IMG/VR virus record: IMGVR_UViG_3300021225_000284
Span: 1-46,900 of that record
Reading direction: 5' to 3' (one strand)
Length of the DNA: 46,900 nt
DNA from: a virus
The translations under genes were made by a program, and so were the position numbers. The notes beneath the pieces are model-generated. The model saw nothing but the letters and a program-made list of their open reading frames with translations. It ran no database searches and was not told the DNA's origin. This document shows positions 3,742-31,990 of the stretch, one piece after another; the stretch's first letter is position 1; the number at the start of each line of letters is the position of its first letter.

Positions 3742-6306
3742 ATGCCAAGCACAAAGCCAATTTTTATGGGTAAATTGATTTATAGTTCAACGCAAAATAA
3801 ATATGCTGGGTTGTACTTTAAATCTGAAAAAATAGACGGTAGCGGAACTGCGGAAGACCAATTTTATTGGATTAATACTGATTCATCTGGTGCTATACAA
3901 GATTATAGAAGTAATATGTTAAATGGGTGGTATTCAAGTCAAGCAAGTGCAGAATCTAATTTGCCAAGTACTTATAGTATTACCGATATTCCTATCATCA
4001 TTGACGATAAATATATGATTGGATTTATGCCTGCTTGGTACACAGATGGAAGTTTTGGTTTTCCTTATACAGTCAATGGTGTAGTGCAAACAAACAATAT
4101 GCACAAATATAATCTTGATAGTATAAAATCAATGATAGATGCAGGTGCTACTTATGTAATTATACCTATTAATCTGGCAACTTTATATTATTCAATAACA
4201 GACTACAACAACGATACTAATAATACAAATAATGATATAATTTATAGCGAAACCGTAAAGACAAATCTTGATGGACTTGTTAAAAATCTAATGGACTGGA
4301 TTCAAGTTAATAATAAAAAGGTTCAAATATCATTTAGACTTGAAACAATATTTACACGTGAAGGATGGAATGATATGCGAACATGGAGTACAAGATTATT
4401 TGAAGATTCAGACTTAATGTTAGATAATACTGGAAACATTGCAAGTGGTATTTATGGAAGAGGTTCATTATCTTATTCATCTACAAAAGCTTTACAGGTA
4501 GCGAAGCAATTTATAATAAACATACTTAGAAGATACAAATCTTATGCTAATGATAGAAAAATACCTATTTATTGGGTATCTTTAGTAAATTCTCAAACGT
4601 CGGAAGCTGAATATGGGTACGAAAATAGTTTAACAATATTTGGAGGTACAAGTCCAAGATTTATGGATTATTCGGATAATGCTTTAAGTGCTTTTAGAAC
4701 ATGGTTGCAAAGTTCGTCTGGTGGCAATTATGCAAGTATTGGAGCAGTTTCTAATGCTTGGAATGACGGATTCACTTATACAAGTTTTTCGCAAGTAACA
4801 AAAGAAAGAATGCCAGCGTGGGGCGTTTCAGATACTGATAGCTTAAATTCAACTAAATTTTTTGCAACAAAAAAAGGTAAAGACTGGTATAATTTCTGCG
4901 TTAGTCAATATGTTAAATTTTACACAGAATTAAAAACATTGGTAAATACTTATGTAAATATTGGTGCGGGCGGACAAACGGTAAAATTTATGCTTGAATC
5001 TGGGGCGGATTTGCAAGAATTTGACTTTAATTCAAGTAGCTATAAAAGAATGACATTTGAGCAATCTAAAATAAAAGATGCTTATGATATTCACAAAACT
5101 TGGTCGAGCTTTTATGCTGGTGCAGGTGATAATAGAAACAAGTGGGGAGCTTTTCAAACTGATTTTGCAAGAACAAATGCAGATTTGTATAGTAAACGAA
5201 TGGGTACTGAATTATATGCTAATGACCTATTAACACAACAAGGAATATCAGCAAATGTAAACGATATGCTAAATGCTTTTAAAGGATTAAATACGTCTTT
5301 AATTAAAAATAAAATAAAAGACATAGTTTATATTGCTCCTAATACTTTTAAAGCTGATATGGTTTACCAAAACGAATCGGCAAGACTTGCAATTGCTGAT
5401 GCGGTTACTCAAATATCATCTATAAGTACATTTGAAAATCCAACAACGGCAGTAACATTTACAATTGATTATTTATTAGAAAATGGCATAACTTCTATAT
5501 TTAATTTGTGGTCGTCAAATGGCGGTTCGACATCTAATAGATTAAGTTTAAGTATAGGATCTACTACTACTGGCGGAGGGTCGTCTGGAGGTGGCGGAGG
5601 TACTGTTTTATGTTCAGGTGTAAAATCATATACAATCTATTCAGATTCGCAAGGAGATTATCATAAATATTGCTTATTTGCTTCAAAATATGCTTCAAAT
5701 ATTGACAATTCAGGTAGTAATAATGGAGGTAACAAATATTATAATTTTGATTCTGCTGGTAAATATACAGGAACAGATGGTGGATTAGCTAATACTCATT
5801 TTGTATTTGCATTACCTACTCACTCGATTACAAATGACAATACTACTACTTCAACTCTAGTAATGCACCAAGTTGAAATTTATGACAATGCCACTAATGC
5901 TTTGTTATTTAAAAATTCACAATTTAGAGGATATAGAAAAACATCTGACAATAGCGGTAATTTCAACCCTAATAATTCGCATCCATCAAATGGGCAAATA
6001 GGTATAAGTCCAATATATTTAAACGGTGATTCTACATTTTTCTTTGAGCTTAATAGAAACTATAAAGTAATAATTAAAAATTTAGCTGGTGTATTTACTG
6101 CTAAATTAGAGAATATCAATGCCGATGCTAATACTTACAGAGTTTATTATGAGGGAAAAATGAACACTAGCTCAACTTTAGAAATAACCATAAATCCTAC
6201 TAAGATTTTAACAGCATATATTAGAGGATTAAAGTTGGTATTAGATAGATTTACTACAACAGATACTATATCTACAACAGATAACAGAAGCCTATTAGCA
6301 CCATGA
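3742..6306 (+). CDS. Tail protein with glycoside-hydrolase-like (GH42-like) barrel
   Basis: 854 residues from the ATG at 3742; a TTG three codons upstream is less likely. Residues about 90-560 look like a TIM barrel. The segment after SEAEYGYEN (284-294) continues with YSDNALSAFRTWL and then AVSNAWNDGFTYTSF, which strongly resembles the YSD.A..AFR.WL...LN.AWG stretch after the acid/base Glu of GH42 beta-galactosidases. E288 or E290 would be the catalytic candidate; the usual Asn-Glu pair is not conserved. A glycine-rich linker (611-620) leads to a C-terminal domain (621-854) that may be a beta-sandwich or carbohydrate-binding module. There is no signal peptide. Its place next to the fibre and its ATGA overlap with the endolysin gene suggest a virion enzyme degrading surface polysaccharide. 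The enzyme activity is inferred. Confidence 0.65.
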   Translation: MPSTKPIFMGKLIYSSTQNKYAGLYFKSEKIDGSGTAEDQFYWINTDSSGAIQDYRSNMLNGWYSSQASAESNLPSTYSITDIPIIIDDKYMIGFMPAWYTDGSFGFPYTVNGVVQTNNMHKYNLDSIKSMIDAGATYVIIPINLATLYYSITDYNNDTNNTNNDIIYSETVKTNLDGLVKNLMDWIQVNNKKVQISFRLETIFTREGWNDMRTWSTRLFEDSDLMLDNTGNIASGIYGRGSLSYSSTKALQVAKQFIINILRRYKSYANDRKIPIYWVSLVNSQTSEAEYGYENSLTIFGGTSPRFMDYSDNALSAFRTWLQSSSGGNYASIGAVSNAWNDGFTYTSFSQVTKERMPAWGVSDTDSLNSTKFFATKKGKDWYNFCVSQYVKFYTELKTLVNTYVNIGAGGQTVKFMLESGADLQEFDFNSSSYKRMTFEQSKIKDAYDIHKTWSSFYAGAGDNRNKWGAFQTDFARTNADLYSKRMGTELYANDLLTQQGISANVNDMLNAFKGLNTSLIKNKIKDIVYIAPNTFKADMVYQNESARLAIADAVTQISSISTFENPTTAVTFTIDYLLENGITSIFNLWSSNGGSTSNRLSLSIGSTTTGGGSSGGGGGTVLCSGVKSYTIYSDSQGDYHKYCLFASKYASNIDNSGSNNGGNKYYNFDSAGKYTGTDGGLANTHFVFALPTHSITNDNTTTSTLVMHQVEIYDNATNALLFKNSQFRGYRKTSDNSGNFNPNNSHPSNGQIGISPIYLNGDSTFFFELNRNYKVIIKNLAGVFTAKLENINADANTYRVYYEGKMNTSSTLEITINPTKILTAYIRGLKLVLDRFTTTDTISTTDNRSLLAP

Positions 6307-7173: not shown

Positions 7174-7522
7174 GGTTAATAAGAGTGGATTAAAATATAA
7201 TCTTTTTGAAATTTCAGAAGCATTTTACTTTATAGTAAATGAGAAAAGAATATATGTGATGAGTGGATTTATAACGGATCTAGCAAGCATACCGCAATTT
7301 TTGTGGTGGCTATTTCCTCCGCATTGCAACGCTTTTGTTGCATCAATTATACATGACTATATTTCACAGTTGAAGCTATTTGATAGAAAAGAATGTGATA
7401 AGATATTTTTAAATTTACTATTGCAATCTGGAATGGGTAAATTTCAAGCATATATTATGTATGCTTTTGTAAGTATATTTAGTGTTAAATATTATGGAAA
7501 AATAAAATTTACAAAAAAATGA
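7130..7522 (+). CDS. DUF1353 phage protein
   Basis: 130 residues. The core SGFITDLASIPQFLWWLFPP, then ASIIHDYI, then DRKECDKIFLNLL and IMYAFVSIFSVKYYG, follows the DUF1353 pattern (TD.ASIP, HD, D.iF, mY..V). The conserved Asp and His residues suggest a metal-binding pocket, but the family has no established function. DUF1353 genes are common near the tail and lysis genes of phages. The start overlaps the upstream gene by 44 bases; a second ATG two codons later (7136) is equally possible. It is followed by an ATGA overlap with the spanin-like gene. Confidence 0.75.
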   Translation: MPMDTSYNRLRTKIKVNKSGLKYNLFEISEAFYFIVNEKRIYVMSGFITDLASIPQFLWWLFPPHCNAFVASIIHDYISQLKLFDRKECDKIFLNLLLQSGMGKFQAYIMYAFVSIFSVKYYGKIKFTKK

Positions 7523-9914: not shown

Positions 9915-10531
9915 TTTTCGTATTGATAAGCTTGTTGAGCATCTTTTTTTAATGATTCATAATCTTTCATGTCAAATGTGCCAGCGAGTAGTTTTGATTC
10001 AAATTCCCTGCGGTTTATAAGACCTTTACTAACTACATATTTAACATTTCCTTTTTTATCCTTTACTTGCACCTTATTCCATTTCTTAAAATAAGAAATA
10101 GCTTTTTTTGTATTTCCTGCAACAAGATGCTTTAAGAAATCTGATTTCTTAATAGCAGATAAGCTACCCGTATTATAGTATAATGATACGATAACAGACT
10201 TTTGCATATATGATAATGCAGGGAATGCCTTATTGACTTCATTGTATTTTTTAGTGATTAGATTTTTAAATAGTTCATCTGCATGAGCCTTGCTTTTTAC
10301 GCTTTTTATTCCAGTCGCTTCGGTGTTGAATCCCCAGCCTACTGTTTTCTTTTGAGCTTGACATTTATAAGCGTTTAATGTCAACTTTTCAACACGTTTT
10401 ACCTGCCAACACATTATCTGATACAATTGCGTGCTAGTAAAATTAGTTGTTTTTTTCTTAAATAATTGAGCTTCAGAATAGTTAATGTTTAACAATAAAG
10501 CTGAAAAAATTGTAATTACTATCTTTTTCAT
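9911..10531 (-). CDS. Exported GH24-type lysozyme with signal peptide
   Basis: 206 residues. Residues 1-21 form a Sec signal peptide (MKK, hydrophobic core, cleavage likely after YSEA). The catalytic block is E48-x8-C57-x5-T63 (KRVEKL..., YKC, KKTVGWGF), the same P21-type arrangement as the endolysin at 6303. MQKSVIVSLYYNTGSL and GLINRREFESKLL are typical of exported phage lysozymes. It should reach the periplasm without a holin. It lies on the minus strand in a five-gene operon controlled by the divergent promoter at 11262-11293, separate from the late lysis genes. A 35-codon membrane-peptide gene ends 12 bases upstream. Possible roles: second lysis pathway, wall remodelling at infection, or effects on competing phages. 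Confidence 0.88.
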   Translation of the reverse strand: MKKIVITIFSALLLNINYSEAQLFKKKTTNFTSTQLYQIMCWQVKRVEKLTLNAYKCQAQKKTVGWGFNTEATGIKSVKSKAHADELFKNLITKKYNEVNKAFPALSYMQKSVIVSLYYNTGSLSAIKKSDFLKHLVAGNTKKAISYFKKWNKVQVKDKKGNVKYVVSKGLINRREFESKLLAGTFDMKDYESLKKDAQQAYQYEK

Positions 10532-13303: not shown

Positions 13304-13693
13304 ATGACTAACCAAGAAAGAATCAAAAAAAGCGTTGATGATAGCTTTATATTCATCACTACTGCACAGTTTTTACTTGATTTCGCAGAAGAAAATATCG
13401 TGCCTAAACAATGGGCAACTACTAAGCTAAAAAGTAGCTTAAAAACGACTATTTCTCTTATACAAGAACGTATCAATGTATTGTTCGGGTTTAAGGCAGA
13501 TAAAAAAGCCTTGGCACAACATTTTAACGCTTCAATAATTATGGAAAACAATATGAAGCTGGTTTTATATTTAGCAACTTTAGAAAAAGAAAAAGCTAAA
13601 GAATTTGAAAACGACTATATGGAGTTATTAAAAAAGTATGGAGCAGATAAGTTGGAGTATAGAGATTTAGATTCAACTGGAATTGATAAGTAA
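13304..13693 (+). CDS. Hypothetical helical protein
   Basis: 129 residues, nearly all predicted helix, no motif recognised. It starts 17 bases after thyX and is probably co-transcribed with it. The C-terminal part is rich in charged residues (KEKAKEFENDYMELLKKYGADKLEYRDLD). No membrane segment or cysteine cluster is seen. It is the last gene before the long non-coding, RNA-rich stretch. Confidence 0.55.
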   Translation: MTNQERIKKSVDDSFIFITTAQFLLDFAEENIVPKQWATTKLKSSLKTTISLIQERINVLFGFKADKKALAQHFNASIIMENNMKLVLYLATLEKEKAKEFENDYMELLKKYGADKLEYRDLDSTGIDK

Positions 13694-13709
13694 AAAAACA
13701 AAATAGTTC

Positions 13710-13740
13710 TTGCAAATAATTTAGTAGCAAACTAACTTTG
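13710..13740 (+). promoter_or_regulatory. Promoter of the 13746-13992 RNA
   Basis: TTG (13710-13712), 20 bases, TAACTTTG (13733-13740): a full match to the Bacteroidota promoter form. No open frame follows; the transcript would start near 13746, just before the first RNA helix. Confidence 0.8.
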
Positions 13741-13745
13741 TACAG

Positions 13746-13992
13746 TTAAGTCTGCAATGCACAGGAATTGAAACATACAGGTAAATTGTTAATTATTAAT
13801 CGTACCACCGCATTGCAGACAAATATTTACTACGTGGTGGAAATAGTTAGACACACCGAATAAATAAGAGGGGAATAGGCTAAACGTTAATCCTATTCAT
13901 GCTTGGGCAGGTCAAGCCGTAGTAGCAACAAAAAGCCTCCTTTAGATTTGTTTTGGTTACTGATAAAGGCACTCCAATTGTGAGTGCTTTTT
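13746..13992 (+). ncRNA. Structured, pseudoknotted non-coding RNA of about 247 nt
   Basis: A gene-free stretch with its own promoter and terminator. Hand-found helices: 13750-13760 with 13810-13820 (11 bp, perfect). CCACC 13805-13809, in the loop of that helix, pairs with GGTGG 13836-13840, making an H-type pseudoknot. TACTACG 13828-13834 pairs with CGTAGTA 13918-13924 and encloses hairpins GAATAGG/CCTATTC (13873-13879, 13892-13898) and GCTTG/CAAGC (13901-13905, 13913-13917). CCTTTA 13939-13944 pairs with TAAAGG 13964-13969. The RNA ends in an intrinsic terminator. It does not have the form of tRNA, tmRNA or 6S RNA. Function unknown. Confidence 0.75.
13969..13992 (+). terminator. Terminator of the structured RNA
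   Basis: GCACTC (13969-13974), 7-base loop, GAGTGC (13982-13987), then five T. It has the same stem sequence as the terminators near 9478 and 16389. Confidence 0.85.
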
Positions 13993-14058
13993 ATTACAAA
14001 ACAATATTAAAATATAAAAAGTTAGAGTAGCATAGGTTGAATGATTAATTAATAAAAG

Positions 14059-14084
14059 ACAGTCTAAATTAGGCTGTTTTTTTT
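14059..14084 (+). terminator. Intrinsic terminator
   Basis: ACAGTCT (14059-14065), AAATT loop, AGGCTGT (14071-14077) with one G-U pair, then seven T. It is probably a backup for the RNA gene upstream; no open frame lies between the two terminators. Confidence 0.75.
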
Positions 14085-14094
14085 GTTTATAGGC

Positions 14095-14177
14095 ACAAAA
14101 AAAGGCATAGACTATAAAATCAATGCCTTTGCCATTCTCTACACTAAAACGTCAATTTTGTGAATAAAAAATGTTAA
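14095..14177 (-). ncRNA. Short minus-strand RNA (about 83 nt)
   Basis: A minus-strand promoter (14183-14211) is followed after about 85 bases by a minus-strand terminator hairpin: AAAGGCAT (complement of 14123-14130), a 14-base loop, ATGCCTTT (complement of 14101-14108) and more T. No meaningful open frame fits inside. It converges on the 13746 RNA and ends just beyond the 14059-14084 terminator. Boundaries are inferred from promoter and terminator only. Confidence 0.55.
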
Positions 14178-14182
14178 TTGCA

Positions 14183-14211
14183 CAAATGTAGTAAAAAGTA
14201 ATCAATACAAA
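14183..14211 (-). promoter_or_regulatory. Promoter of short minus-strand RNA
   Basis: On the minus strand TTTG (complement of 14208-14211), 17 bases, then TACATTTG (complement of 14183-14190), a full TAnnTTTG match. Confidence 0.65.
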
Positions 14212-14233
14212 ATAAAATATTTTCAAATAATTA

Positions 14234-14263
14234 TTTGCTATTACGAATTATTTAGTAATTTTA
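14234..14263 (+). promoter_or_regulatory. Probable promoter of the 14288-16283 small-gene operon
   Basis: TTTG (14234-14237), 18 bases, TAATTTTA (14256-14263), one mismatch from TAnnTTTG. TTTAGTAA (14251-14258) overlaps it and matches one arm of the operator dyad at 11296-11318. Confidence 0.5.
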
Positions 14264-14287
14264 CATAAAATTTAAACTAATACAATT

Positions 14288-14482
14288 ATGACAGAACAAC
14301 AATTCCAAACCAAAGTAATTAATCATAGACGAAAGATTGACTACTACGATAATCTAATTGATAATGAGAAAGACCACGACAACAGAATAGTTTTGTATGA
14401 TAAATTTGTAGCAAGCCTATTATCATTATCAAGACTAGAAAATAGATATAAAAAACAACAATTAAACAATAAAACAAAATGA
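14288..14482 (+). CDS. Small hypothetical protein
   Basis: 64 residues, helical and highly charged (HRRKIDYYDNLIDNEKDHDN...SLLSLSRLENRYKKQQ). It is the first gene of an operon of seven small genes and overlaps the next one by 4 bases (ATGA). No motif recognised. A small coiled-coil protein is plausible. Confidence 0.55.
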   Translation: MTEQQFQTKVINHRRKIDYYDNLIDNEKDHDNRIVLYDKFVASLLSLSRLENRYKKQQLNNKTK

Positions 14483-28337: not shown

Positions 28338-28781
28338 ATGACAATGATAACAAATCAAACAGCTCTTGGATACCCATTTTCTTCAGCAGAAAAAATACTG
28401 CCAACGCATTTCCAATTAAAATGGGGTGCTGGCAGTAGACCAATAATTAATATTCCGTTTAACACGGAATACCAAAAAGTAAAAGCAGGAAAGCAAGGCG
28501 AGGTTTATTCTTGCGAAAGCTGGTCAGATTATGTGTCTGGCGGTTATGGATGCGGTATTGTCTTTAATAATGTCGATATTTCGACAAAATTTAGAGAAAA
28601 TAATAGTAGCGGATTAGATTCTATCTTTAAAGGATCTAACCCTATTATTAATCTTAAAGGCGGGGATAAAACAATTGCTATTTTTGAAGGAAATAGGGCA
28701 AAAGAATTTATTGAAAAGGTTGGGAGGTTTATTCCAACGTCAAATGGAGGGGGACAAGGTATAACTATTGTGTTTTTATAA
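28338..28781 (+). CDS. Hypothetical glycine-rich protein before terminase
   Basis: 147 residues from ATG 28338; ATG 28344 and an upstream GTG at 28314 are alternatives. GAGSRPIINIPFNTEYQKV, VSGGYGCGIVFNNVDISTKF and STSNGGGQGITIVFL have a beta-rich, compact look. No motif recognised. It is followed by a strong terminator, separating it from the late operon. Confidence 0.55.
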   Translation: MTMITNQTALGYPFSSAEKILPTHFQLKWGAGSRPIINIPFNTEYQKVKAGKQGEVYSCESWSDYVSGGYGCGIVFNNVDISTKFRENNSSGLDSIFKGSNPIINLKGGDKTIAIFEGNRAKEFIEKVGRFIPTSNGGGQGITIVFL

Positions 28782-29277: not shown

Positions 29278-30571
29278 ACAAACATTGACATTGGATTATT
29301 TAGAAAATAATAATGTTAATGAAATTTTATTCGGTGGAGGTGCAGGCGGTGGAAAAAGTATTCTTGGTTGCTATTGGCAAATAAAAACAAGGTTAAAATA
29401 CGCAGGTACACGTGGATTGATAGGTAGAGCATCTTTAAAAACTTTAAAGGAAACTACCTTGCAATCCTTTTTTTTTGTTGCTCAAATGCAAGGATTAAAA
29501 GCTAATGTACATTTTAAGTTTAATCAGCAGTCAAATGTAATTACTTTCTTCAATGGTTCTCAAATACTTTTAAAAGATTTGTTTCTATATCCAAGCGACC
29601 CAAACTTTGATGAGCTTGGCTCACTTGAAATAACTGATGCTTTTATAGACGAAGCAAACCAAATAGTTGACAAGGCAAAAAGTATTTTAAAGTCACGTAT
29701 TAGATATAAATTAGACGAAAATAATTTAATACCGAAAATACTTTATACTTGCAATCCTGCCAAAAATTGGACGTATCAAGAATTTTATTTACCTAGTAAA
29801 AAAGGTGAATTACAAGAAAATAAAAAGTTTGTACAAAGTCTTGTCACTGATAATCCTAACATTTCTAAGCATTATATTGAAAATTTAAAGCTATTACCAA
29901 AGGAGCAAAGGGAACGTTTATTGTATGGTAATTGGGAATACGACGACGACCCTTCATCCCTTATTAGCTACGAAAATATATTAAATTGCTTTACAAATAC
30001 ATTTGTACAGCAAGGAATAAGTTATATTACGGCAGATATTGCACGTTTTGGACGAGATAAAACCGTCATTGGTATTTGGTCAGGTTGGAGACTTGAACAA
30101 GTGCAAACGATTGAAAAAAGTTCTTTAGATGTAGTAGTTCAGAAAATAAACGATTTAAGGAATTTATTTAATATACCTTTATCAAATATTATTGTCGATG
30201 AAGATGGAGTTGGCGGAGGTGTCAAAGACTTTTTAAATTGTAAAGGTTTTATCAATAATTCATCACCTATCAAATTGAATAATTCTGATGCTAACTTTAA
30301 TAATATCAAATCTCAATGCTATTTTGGATTAGCTGAAAAAATAAATAAAAACGAAGTATTTTTTAATACAACTGGCATACATAAAGAAGCTATTATTGAA
30401 GAATTACAATATGTCAAACAAGACAAAATGGATTCTGATAATAAAAAGCAAGTGTTAAGAAAAGAAAAGGTCAAAGAATTATTAAATCGTTCTCCCGATT
30501 ATTCTGATATGATAATGATGAGATATTTTTTTGAGTTAAATAATAAACCAATCGAGTGGAAAATATACTAA
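29261..30571 (+). CDS. terL: Large terminase subunit
   Basis: 436 residues. Walker A at about 25-33 (GGGAGGGKS), Walker B with catalytic Glu at D130-E131 (DAFIDEANQ), and coupling motif CNPAKNW. The RNase H-like nuclease has D259 (ADIARFGRDKT), D313 (VDEDGVGGG) and D413/D416 (SPDYSDMIMM). The ATPase motor packages DNA into proheads and the nuclease cuts it. The length is at the low end of the usual range. The gene overlaps terS and is followed by the portal gene. Confidence 0.96.
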   Translation: MKLSIKQTLTLDYLENNNVNEILFGGGAGGGKSILGCYWQIKTRLKYAGTRGLIGRASLKTLKETTLQSFFFVAQMQGLKANVHFKFNQQSNVITFFNGSQILLKDLFLYPSDPNFDELGSLEITDAFIDEANQIVDKAKSILKSRIRYKLDENNLIPKILYTCNPAKNWTYQEFYLPSKKGELQENKKFVQSLVTDNPNISKHYIENLKLLPKEQRERLLYGNWEYDDDPSSLISYENILNCFTNTFVQQGISYITADIARFGRDKTVIGIWSGWRLEQVQTIEKSSLDVVVQKINDLRNLFNIPLSNIIVDEDGVGGGVKDFLNCKGFINNSSPIKLNNSDANFNNIKSQCYFGLAEKINKNEVFFNTTGIHKEAIIEELQYVKQDKMDSDNKKQVLRKEKVKELLNRSPDYSDMIMMRYFFELNNKPIEWKIY

Positions 30572-30592
30572 TATAAAATTTAATTAAAATTT

Positions 30593-31990
30593 ATGAATAT
30601 ACTTGAATTTTTAGGATTAAAAAAAAAGCAGTTAGTTTTGCCAGATTATGACAAGCTACCTGCACAACTTATATTTAGACAGTTCGGAGCTTCTCCCGTT
30701 TTATATTACGCTGAAAATTCAGACAACTATCTTAAAAAAGGGTTTGAGGGTAATCACGTAGTATTTACTATTGCCGATTATTGTGGCAGAAAGTTGACTA
30801 CTATTCCGCCAATTTTATACAAAGTAAAAGACAAATCAGCTCAAAAAGATTATAACTATCTACGTAAAGAAGGCAGTTATCATAACTACCGTGAATCTTT
30901 AAGAATAAAAGCAAAAGCATTTGATGAAGTTAGAAGTCATCCAATTTTAGATATATTAGCAAAACCAAACCCGACAATGAATTGGGATGAATTTGTTTAT
31001 GGATATTTTGTTTATAAAAAGTTTGTCGGACGTTCTGTAATTCAAGGAGTATCTACCGATACAGGAATTAACAAAGGCAAACCACAGGAGCTTTGGCTAT
31101 TACCTGCAAACTATATTCAAGCAGTATCAGGAAGTAATTTAAACATCATAGACTATTACCAAGATTCACGCAACCCAGAGTTTAAAATTCCGACAGACCA
31201 AGTTTTAATGATTAGAAATTTTAGTTCTGATTATAGCGTGCCTGGTGGTCATCTGTCGGGTATGTCTGTACTAAAGTCTGCATCAAAACTTTTAACAAAA
31301 AGTAATAGTGCAATGGATGCAGAAACAGAAAGCTTACAAAATAGAGGTGCAAGGACATTGGTTTATCCTCAAATACCTAAAGAAATGCTTGGCGGAGGAA
31401 TAACAATGCCCGATGGACAAACGATTGATGCTATGAATATGGCATTAAATAAACGTTTAAAAGAAGCAGGAAATCAAGGAGTAGTTTTAAACTCATTGCC
31501 TTTAGGAATTGCTCAAATAGGATTGTCGCCAGTTGATTTGCAAATATTAGAAACAAATCGTTTTGATATTCAAATGTGGTGTAGCTTATTTCACGTTGAT
31601 TCAAGAGTTATTTTCAATGACCATACAAGCTCAACTTTGGATAATATGAAAACAGCTCGTTTAAATACTATTACAGATGGAATATTCCCAGACATCGAAG
31701 CATTGAAAAACGGATTGAATGAGTTTTTGGTTAAGAAATGGGATAATACACTTGTACTTGACTTTGATTATACTATATTACCCGAAATTCAGGATAATCT
31801 TAGACAAGTAGCTAAAGATATGAAAGAGGCTGAGGTATTTACTGTAAATGAGATTAGGGAAATGTGGAAGTATGGAAATTATGAGGGAGAAAATGCAGAT
31901 AAAATACTAATTAGTAGCAGTAAACAAATTTTAGATGATTTATCGTCAAGTTTGCCAAATGTTACTGATACAAATGTAGCAGGTTATTGA
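30593..31990 (+). CDS. Portal protein
   Basis: 465 residues, HK97-type phage portal. Features: VVFTIADYCGRKLTTIPPILYK, HPILDILAKPNPTMNWDEFVYGYFVYKKFVGRSVIQ, ELWLLPANYIQAV, LMIRNFSSDYSVPGGHLSGMSVLKSASKLL and IQMWCSLFHVDSRVI. It forms the dodecameric ring through which DNA enters. Order terS-terL-portal-head protein is standard. Confidence 0.93.
   Translation: MNILEFLGLKKKQLVLPDYDKLPAQLIFRQFGASPVLYYAENSDNYLKKGFEGNHVVFTIADYCGRKLTTIPPILYKVKDKSAQKDYNYLRKEGSYHNYRESLRIKAKAFDEVRSHPILDILAKPNPTMNWDEFVYGYFVYKKFVGRSVIQGVSTDTGINKGKPQELWLLPANYIQAVSGSNLNIIDYYQDSRNPEFKIPTDQVLMIRNFSSDYSVPGGHLSGMSVLKSASKLLTKSNSAMDAETESLQNRGARTLVYPQIPKEMLGGGITMPDGQTIDAMNMALNKRLKEAGNQGVVLNSLPLGIAQIGLSPVDLQILETNRFDIQMWCSLFHVDSRVIFNDHTSSTLDNMKTARLNTITDGIFPDIEALKNGLNEFLVKKWDNTLVLDFDYTILPEIQDNLRQVAKDMKEAEVFTVNEIREMWKYGNYEGENADKILISSSKQILDDLSSSLPNVTDTNVAGY

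What the first reader, a model, noticed from the sequence alone, without database searches (positions are those of the whole stretch)
13746..13992. Undescribed-looking pseudoknotted RNA with own promoter and terminator
An 11-bp perfect helix, a pseudoknot (CCACC/GGTGG) crossing it, a 7-bp long-range helix enclosing two hairpins, and an intrinsic terminator occupy a gene-free stretch behind a full promoter match. I do not recognise it as tRNA, tmRNA, 6S or any phage RNA I know.
Basis: partly seen in the sequence, partly recalled or inferred. Interest (0 to 1): 0.8.

Follow-up and report, generated by a model that had tools for sequence, protein, structure and literature searches.

The report
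Phage tRNA-mimic RNA without an anticodon
The stretch encodes a small RNA, very probably from a phage of Bacteroidota bacteria, that copies the outer shape of a transfer RNA but carries a different conserved module where the anticodon arm should be; it belongs to a large and apparently undescribed family of such RNAs in environmental phages.

Summary
The "7-bp long-range helix enclosing two hairpins" is the acceptor stem of a tRNA-like structure (TLS, 13827-13925) that encloses a D-arm, a variable-arm-like hairpin and a T-arm. The anticodon arm is missing. In its place is a module with AATAAGA and a hairpin with the loop CTANRCGYTRAT. A search pattern made only from this module hits 27 IMG/VR stretches; 26 lie inside the same tRNA-like frame, with compensatory changes in acceptor, T-arm and module stems (0/500 shuffles reach the observed values). 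A covariance model built without the window finds the window at 71 bits, E about 6e-16. The module is one of many. I collected 151 unique TLS with acceptor AGTCAGG, carrying 123 distinct modules, often several per phage and mixed with ordinary tRNA genes. A second module, searched by its own letters, sits in the frame in 21 of 21 hits. Rfam and ARAGORN report nothing in the window, GenBank phages gave no such element, and 395 genomes of one Bacteroidota class hold it only in the query assembly. The CCACC/GGTGG pseudoknot is not supported. Function is inferred: a processed, stable, non-decoding tRNA mimic used as decoy or adaptor.

The parts
13710..13740 (+). Bacteroidota-type promoter: TTG (13710-13712), 20-nt spacer, TAACTTTG (13733-13740)
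   Evidence: Sequence and pattern scan; 97% conserved in L002
13750..13820 (+). Upstream hairpin: 11-bp perfect stem GTCTGCAATGC/GCATTGCAGAC with a 49-nt loop
   Evidence: identical stem in L002; unrelated 12-bp stem in the same place before a TLS of L111
13827..13925 (+). tRNA-like structure (TLS), positions -1 to 73
   Evidence: Covariance model built without the window: 71 bits, E 5.7e-16
13828..13834 (+). Acceptor stem, 5' strand TACTACG (pairs with 13918-13924 CGTAGTA)
   Evidence: 6 of 7 pairs show compensatory changes in relatives
13835..13854 (+). T8 G9 and D-arm: stem GTG/CAC (13837-13839/13852-13854), loop GAAATAGTTAGA
   Evidence: tRNA-Leu-like D-arm; GTG/CAC versus GCG/CGC in relatives is compensatory
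13855..13900 (+). Module in place of the anticodon arm ('alpha' module): AATAAGA (13863-13869) and hairpin GAATAGG/CCTATTC (13873-13879/13892-13898) with loop CTAAACGTTAAT
   Evidence: Module-only pattern: 26 of 27 hits in IMG/VR lie in a tRNA-like frame; stem covaries with up to 4 Watson-Crick types per position
13901..13917 (+). T-arm GCTTG-GGCAGGT-CAAGC (non-standard loop)
   Evidence: 5 bp and 7-nt loop; 4 of 5 pairs compensated; GGCAG loops recur in four other TLS
13918..13925 (+). Acceptor stem, 3' strand CGTAGTA, and discriminator G73
13965..13992 (+). Intrinsic terminator: GCACTC-CAATTGT-GAGTGC followed by TTTTT
   Evidence: Sequence; same element after the TLS of L002 and L111; not listed by the scanner

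Best explanation
The stretch is a small transcription unit for a non-decoding tRNA mimic. SHOWN: RNA 13827-13925 has tRNA geometry (7-bp acceptor stem, T8, 3-bp D-stem, 5-bp T-stem with 7-nt loop) but no anticodon arm; a conserved module (AATAAGA plus a hairpin with loop CTANRCGYTRAT) fills that place; the paired parts are kept by compensatory change; the same frame carries over a hundred other modules in environmental phages. INFERRED: transcription from the Bacteroidota promoter to the terminator; trimming by the host's RNase P and 3' tRNA-processing enzymes, with CCA addition, which makes a stable small RNA; the tRNA-like part serves as a scaffold that attaches the RNA to tRNA-binding proteins, and the module is the variable business end. 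My preferred function is a decoy or adaptor that interferes with host proteins acting on tRNA (translation take-over or counter-defence), each module fitting a different target. The tRNA-Leu-like D-arm and the A73 of most relatives make leucine charging without an anticodon thinkable; the window copy has G73 and a changed T-loop, so it may not be charged.
For: Independent model hit 71 bits, E 5.7e-16, one strong site in the window. Covariation: 99.0% of cells paired, 11 pairs with double changes against 2.4 in shuffles, 0/500; without the window 98.5%, 11 against 3.8, 0/500. The module-only pattern recovers the frame with acceptors AGTCAGG, AGTCATG, GGGGGTG, AGTCCTG. A second module recovers the frame in 21/21 hits with near-invariant module letters. 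151 unique AGTCAGG TLS, 123 module clusters; modules fold better than shuffles (mean z -0.70 against -0.21 for controls, p 7e-5); N73 is A in 132/151. TLS lie among 27-29 ARAGORN tRNA calls in L330 and L332, where decoding is already covered. The T-arm/acceptor motif is in 1 of 395 genomes of one Bacteroidota class, and that one is the query MAG.
Against: No expression or processing data. The window copy departs from the family in T-loop (GGCAGGT), D-loop (no GG) and discriminator (G73), so standard tRNA enzymes may not act on it. No module target found: no complementarity to the phage's own locus beyond chance (longest match 9.5 nt against 9.6 expected). The decoy/adaptor function rests on analogy only.
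Confidence: 0.55

Rival explanations
1. Decayed tRNA genes: the phages once carried tRNA genes whose anticodon arms are drifting away; the remaining arms are relics.
For: The frame is tRNA-Leu-like; some TLS still pass the Rfam tRNA threshold (31-40 bits); modules look hypervariable (123 clusters among 146).
Against: Stems are kept by compensatory changes. Individual modules are conserved across phages with different flanks. Modules are more structured than controls. Many phages share one acceptor sequence while their true tRNAs each have their own.
Confidence: 0.1
2. Processing signals: the TLS are cleavage sites for RNase P and 3' processing enzymes that cut polycistronic phage transcripts, and the inside is irrelevant.
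For: TLS lie between genes and tRNAs in L002, L111 and L330.
Against: The inside is conserved by class. In the window the TLS has its own promoter and terminator and separates no genes. The acceptor sequence is conserved, which RNase P does not need.
Confidence: 0.15
3. Y RNA-type partner of a Ro/TROVE protein: a tRNA-like domain plus a long stem that binds the Ro ring.
For: YrlA RNAs also have D, T and acceptor arms without an anticodon (PMC8394870). The window has an 11-bp helix next to the TLS. One TLS-bearing record of 14 has a TROVE gene (G008).
Against: No TROVE match in the window record, in L002's or L111's record, or in 13 of 14 records tested (several may be fragments). The long helix is a separate upstream hairpin, not a stem formed by the RNA's two ends. 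No Rfam Y RNA hit.
Confidence: 0.07
4. Functional tRNA with an unusual intron or odd anticodon arm: splicing or refolding gives a decoding tRNA.
Against: No anticodon stem-loop can be drawn in the alpha module; modules share no splice-like ends; phages with nearly full tRNA sets carry many TLS besides.
Confidence: 0.08

Closest known systems
Transfer RNA (Rfam RF00005), in particular tRNA-Leu
   Same: Acceptor, D- and T-arm geometry, T8, D-arm letters TGGYGGAATTGGTAGACRC, and in most relatives T-loop TTCRAAT and A73
   Different: No anticodon arm; 20-150 nt module instead; below Rfam threshold in the window; T-loop and discriminator differ in the window copy
tmRNA (RF00023)
   Same: tRNA-like domain with the anticodon arm replaced by something else
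   Different: About 100 nt, no mRNA-like domain, many modules per phage; Rfam tmRNA does not match it although it does find a true tmRNA in L331
Bacterial Y RNA, YrlA
   Same: tRNA-like domain with D, T and acceptor arms, no anticodon (PMC8394870)
   Different: No Ro-binding terminal stem seen; no TROVE gene in the record; frame and size differ
Phage T4 RNA C and RNA D (stable RNAs of the T4 tRNA cluster; from memory, not tested)
   Same: Small non-tRNA RNAs encoded among phage tRNA genes, function unknown
   Different: No sequence or fold comparison was made here

Membership tests
TLS 'alpha' class defined here | Match to a covariance model of the class built without the window | tested here: met
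   R2: 71 bits, E 5.7e-16
TLS 'alpha' class defined here | Module AATAAGA plus hairpin with loop CTANRCGYTRAT inside acceptor/D/T frame | tested here: met
tRNA (RF00005) | 7-bp acceptor stem, 5-bp T-stem with 7-nt loop, D-stem | tested here: met
tRNA (RF00005) | 5-bp anticodon stem with 7-nt loop | tested here: not met
   Module occupies the place; ARAGORN none in window
tRNA (RF00005) | Rfam gathering score | tested here: not met
   No match in window at gathering, none at E up to 10 in 13600-14140
tRNA (RF00005) | T-loop TTCRANN | tested here: not met
   GGCAGGT in the window; TTCRAAT in most relatives
tmRNA (RF00023) | Rfam match and tag-encoding domain | tested here: not met
   No Rfam match in window; ARAGORN finds no tmRNA
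Y RNA (YrlA) | Ro/TROVE protein encoded nearby | tested here: not met
   PF05731 absent from the window record and 12 of 13 other TLS records; the host could supply one
Y RNA (YrlA) | Long stem formed by the 5' and 3' ends of the RNA | tested here: inconclusive
   11-bp helix is upstream of, not around, the TLS; transcript ends unknown
Any of 4227 Rfam 15 families | Gathering score | tested here: not met

The most novel reading that the evidence does not exclude
A virus-specific superfamily of modular tRNA mimics: one tRNA-Leu-like frame, shared and exchanged between environmental phages, presents well over a hundred interchangeable RNA modules in place of the anticodon arm, used as an arsenal of decoys or adaptors against host tRNA-handling or defence proteins.
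Probability: 0.4. Interest if true: 0.92.

Novelty: new variant of a known kind. Interest (0 to 1): 0.78.

Why it matters
tRNA-like RNAs without an anticodon are known only as a few types such as tmRNA and Y RNA. Here environmental phages carry a family with one frame and many conserved modules, which standard annotation misses or files as odd tRNA genes. If the RNAs are stable and the modules have targets, this is a new class of phage effector RNA and offers a way into how phages handle host translation and tRNA-directed defence. It also warns that some phage 'tRNA' counts include genes that cannot decode.

Tried and rejected
Rfam at E up to 10 on 13600-14140: best CRISPR-DR63 (25.9 bits, threshold 37), with its two halves 53 nt apart; treated as chance. 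blastn of 13640-14300 against GenBank phages: only short chance matches. The protein upstream (13304-13693) has no relative but L002's record. The 11-bp hairpin as a family: pattern CCACCGCATTGCAGAC finds only L002's record plus unrelated hits. Modules as antisense RNAs to their own locus: no excess complementarity. Long hairpins before TLS in general: 4.5% against 1.5% in controls, too few to claim. Ro/TROVE association: 1 of 14 records. Ten literature searches found no description of such a family in the open-access library held; subscription papers and preprints were not searchable. The scan with TACTACGTGGYGGAA gave mostly unrelated matches, with two true relatives, L111 and the record of L002.

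Full report
What was checked. The stretch 13746-13992 lies between small genes of a 46.9 kb virus record. The record has terminase, portal and major head genes and a thyX gene just upstream. The stretch has no ORF of 60 aa or more on the + strand between 13694 and 14287. The promoter is of Bacteroidota type (TTG, 20 nt, TAACTTTG). Rfam at gathering threshold and ARAGORN report nothing in the window. The stretch folds better than dinucleotide shuffles (z -2.74).

First clue. A near relative, L002 (ThyX protein 99% identical), shares the promoter and 11-bp hairpin (98% over 126 nt) and the terminator end (92%), but has about 1.5 kb where the window has 108 nt. That 1.5 kb holds two elements with tRNA geometry: 7-bp acceptor, T8, 3-bp D-stem, and 5-bp T-stem with a 7-nt loop. 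The window has exactly one such element with a non-overlapping fold, 13828-13924, and its acceptor TACTACG/CGTAGTA is the same as that of the second L002 element. A third virus, L111, has four elements, one of them with the same acceptor just after the same DUF4406 gene as in L002 and before a similar terminator.

The family. Nearly all read AGTCAGG-TG-GCG-loop-CGC-[module]-ACAGG-TTCGAAT-CCTGT-CCTGACT-A. A geometry search found 151 unique elements with acceptor AGTCAGG. Their modules form 123 clusters, 107 of them single, with a median length of 53.5 nt. The discriminator is A in 132 of 151. The modules fold better than shuffles (mean z -0.70, controls -0.21, p 7e-5). Because most loci were fetched with an acceptor-bearing pattern, the dominance of AGTCAGG is partly ascertainment. 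Copies in the same records that were not used as anchors also often carry AGTCAGG, while the ordinary tRNA genes there each have their own acceptor.

The decisive test for the window. A pattern taken only from the module (AATAAGAN{3,14}GGCTANRCGYTRATCC) hit 27 IMG/VR stretches; 26 lie inside the tRNA-like frame, with acceptors AGTCAGG, AGTCATG, GGGGGTG and AGTCCTG besides the window's TACTACG. On 16 distinct sequences 99.0% of cells pair, and 11 of 18 pairs have changes on both sides (shuffle mean 2.4, 0/500); slid controls pair 31-46%. The module hairpin has up to four Watson-Crick types per position. Without the window, on 13 sequences, 98.5% pair and 11 of 22 pairs have double changes. A covariance model from those 13 finds the window at 71 bits, E 5.7e-16. 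A second module (ACTTAAGCA..GCTGGGTAA), searched by its own letters, lies in the frame in 21 of 21 hits, on contigs with different genomic flanks in most cases. So modules are conserved units, not drift.

The 7-bp helix is the acceptor stem; the two hairpins are the module hairpin and the T-arm. GGTGG is part of the D-arm, so the pseudoknot has no support, and L002 does not keep it. The 11-bp hairpin is genuine by chance standards, but only one near relative shares it; its three nearby substitutions fall outside the stem, so covariation cannot be tested.

Peculiarities of the window copy. Its T-loop is GGCAGGT and its D-loop has AG where relatives have GG. The same pairing of a GGCAG T-loop with an AG D-loop is seen in four other elements (L002, L111, L136, L218), which hints at a changed but kept elbow contact. 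The module loop contains RCGY, always ACGT or GCGC in the members found, a self-complementary core that could pair between two molecules.

Distribution. GenBank phages gave no element with both D-arm and T-arm/acceptor halves. Of 395 genomes of one Bacteroidota class, only the query MAG has the T-arm/acceptor motif. True members in the genome collection are in MAG contigs, e.g. Sediminibacterium, Chitinophagaceae, Peregrinibacteria, which may be viral contigs binned with the host. Some records carry 27-29 ARAGORN tRNA calls (a few of which are TLS) in the same cluster, and part of those TLS pass the Rfam tRNA threshold at 31-40 bits, so pipelines may list them as odd tRNA genes.

Mechanism. 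The frame is what RNase P, 3' processing and CCA-adding enzymes recognise (established knowledge), so maturation into a stable RNA is likely but not shown. Absence of an anticodon excludes decoding. Since LeuRS does not read the anticodon (general knowledge), leucine charging is thinkable for members with A73 and standard loops, less so for the window copy. I favour a decoy or adaptor role; no target was found, and complementarity to the own locus is at chance. Compared with tmRNA and YrlA it works alike in having a tRNA-like part without anticodon, but it is a member of neither.

Noticed in passing
L002:7351-7430, L111 reverse strand 7359-7440, L136 reverse strand 4034-4116, L218 reverse strand 10332-10411: A third TLS class with D-arm GAGTAAAAGTAACTC, conserved GTGAGC...GCAAAA and T-loop GGCAGTA; its short inner stem changes as TGG/CCA, TTG/CAA, TGT/ACA.
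   Followed up: partly
L307:7590-7655: The alpha module outside a tRNA-like frame: closed by an 8-bp stem GACCGGGG/CCCCGGTC, shortly before a gene; suggests the module can act on its own.
   Followed up: partly
L189, L199, L200, L211, L216, L240, L310: TLS with hairpin insertions in the D-loop (GGAA-[hairpin]-GGTAGACGC).
   Followed up: no
L002:8625-8830: Further structured, gene-free stretch before the terminator, not recognised.
   Followed up: no
L331 / record G008: A 94 kb TLS-bearing virus record with a tmRNA (L331:15310-15804) and a TROVE-domain gene (about 29834-30610 of the record).
   Followed up: partly
L332:9259-9749: GOLLD RNA with a tRNA-Lys inside it, next to a cluster of ARAGORN tRNA calls and several TLS.
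   Followed up: no
window 14054-14082 and about 14095-14135: Second terminator-like hairpin, then a further inverted repeat (AAAGGCAT...ATGCCTTT) before the next gene.
   Followed up: no
window 28565-28653: Very weak match to the TLS model (14.4 bits, E 0.29), probably chance.
   Followed up: no
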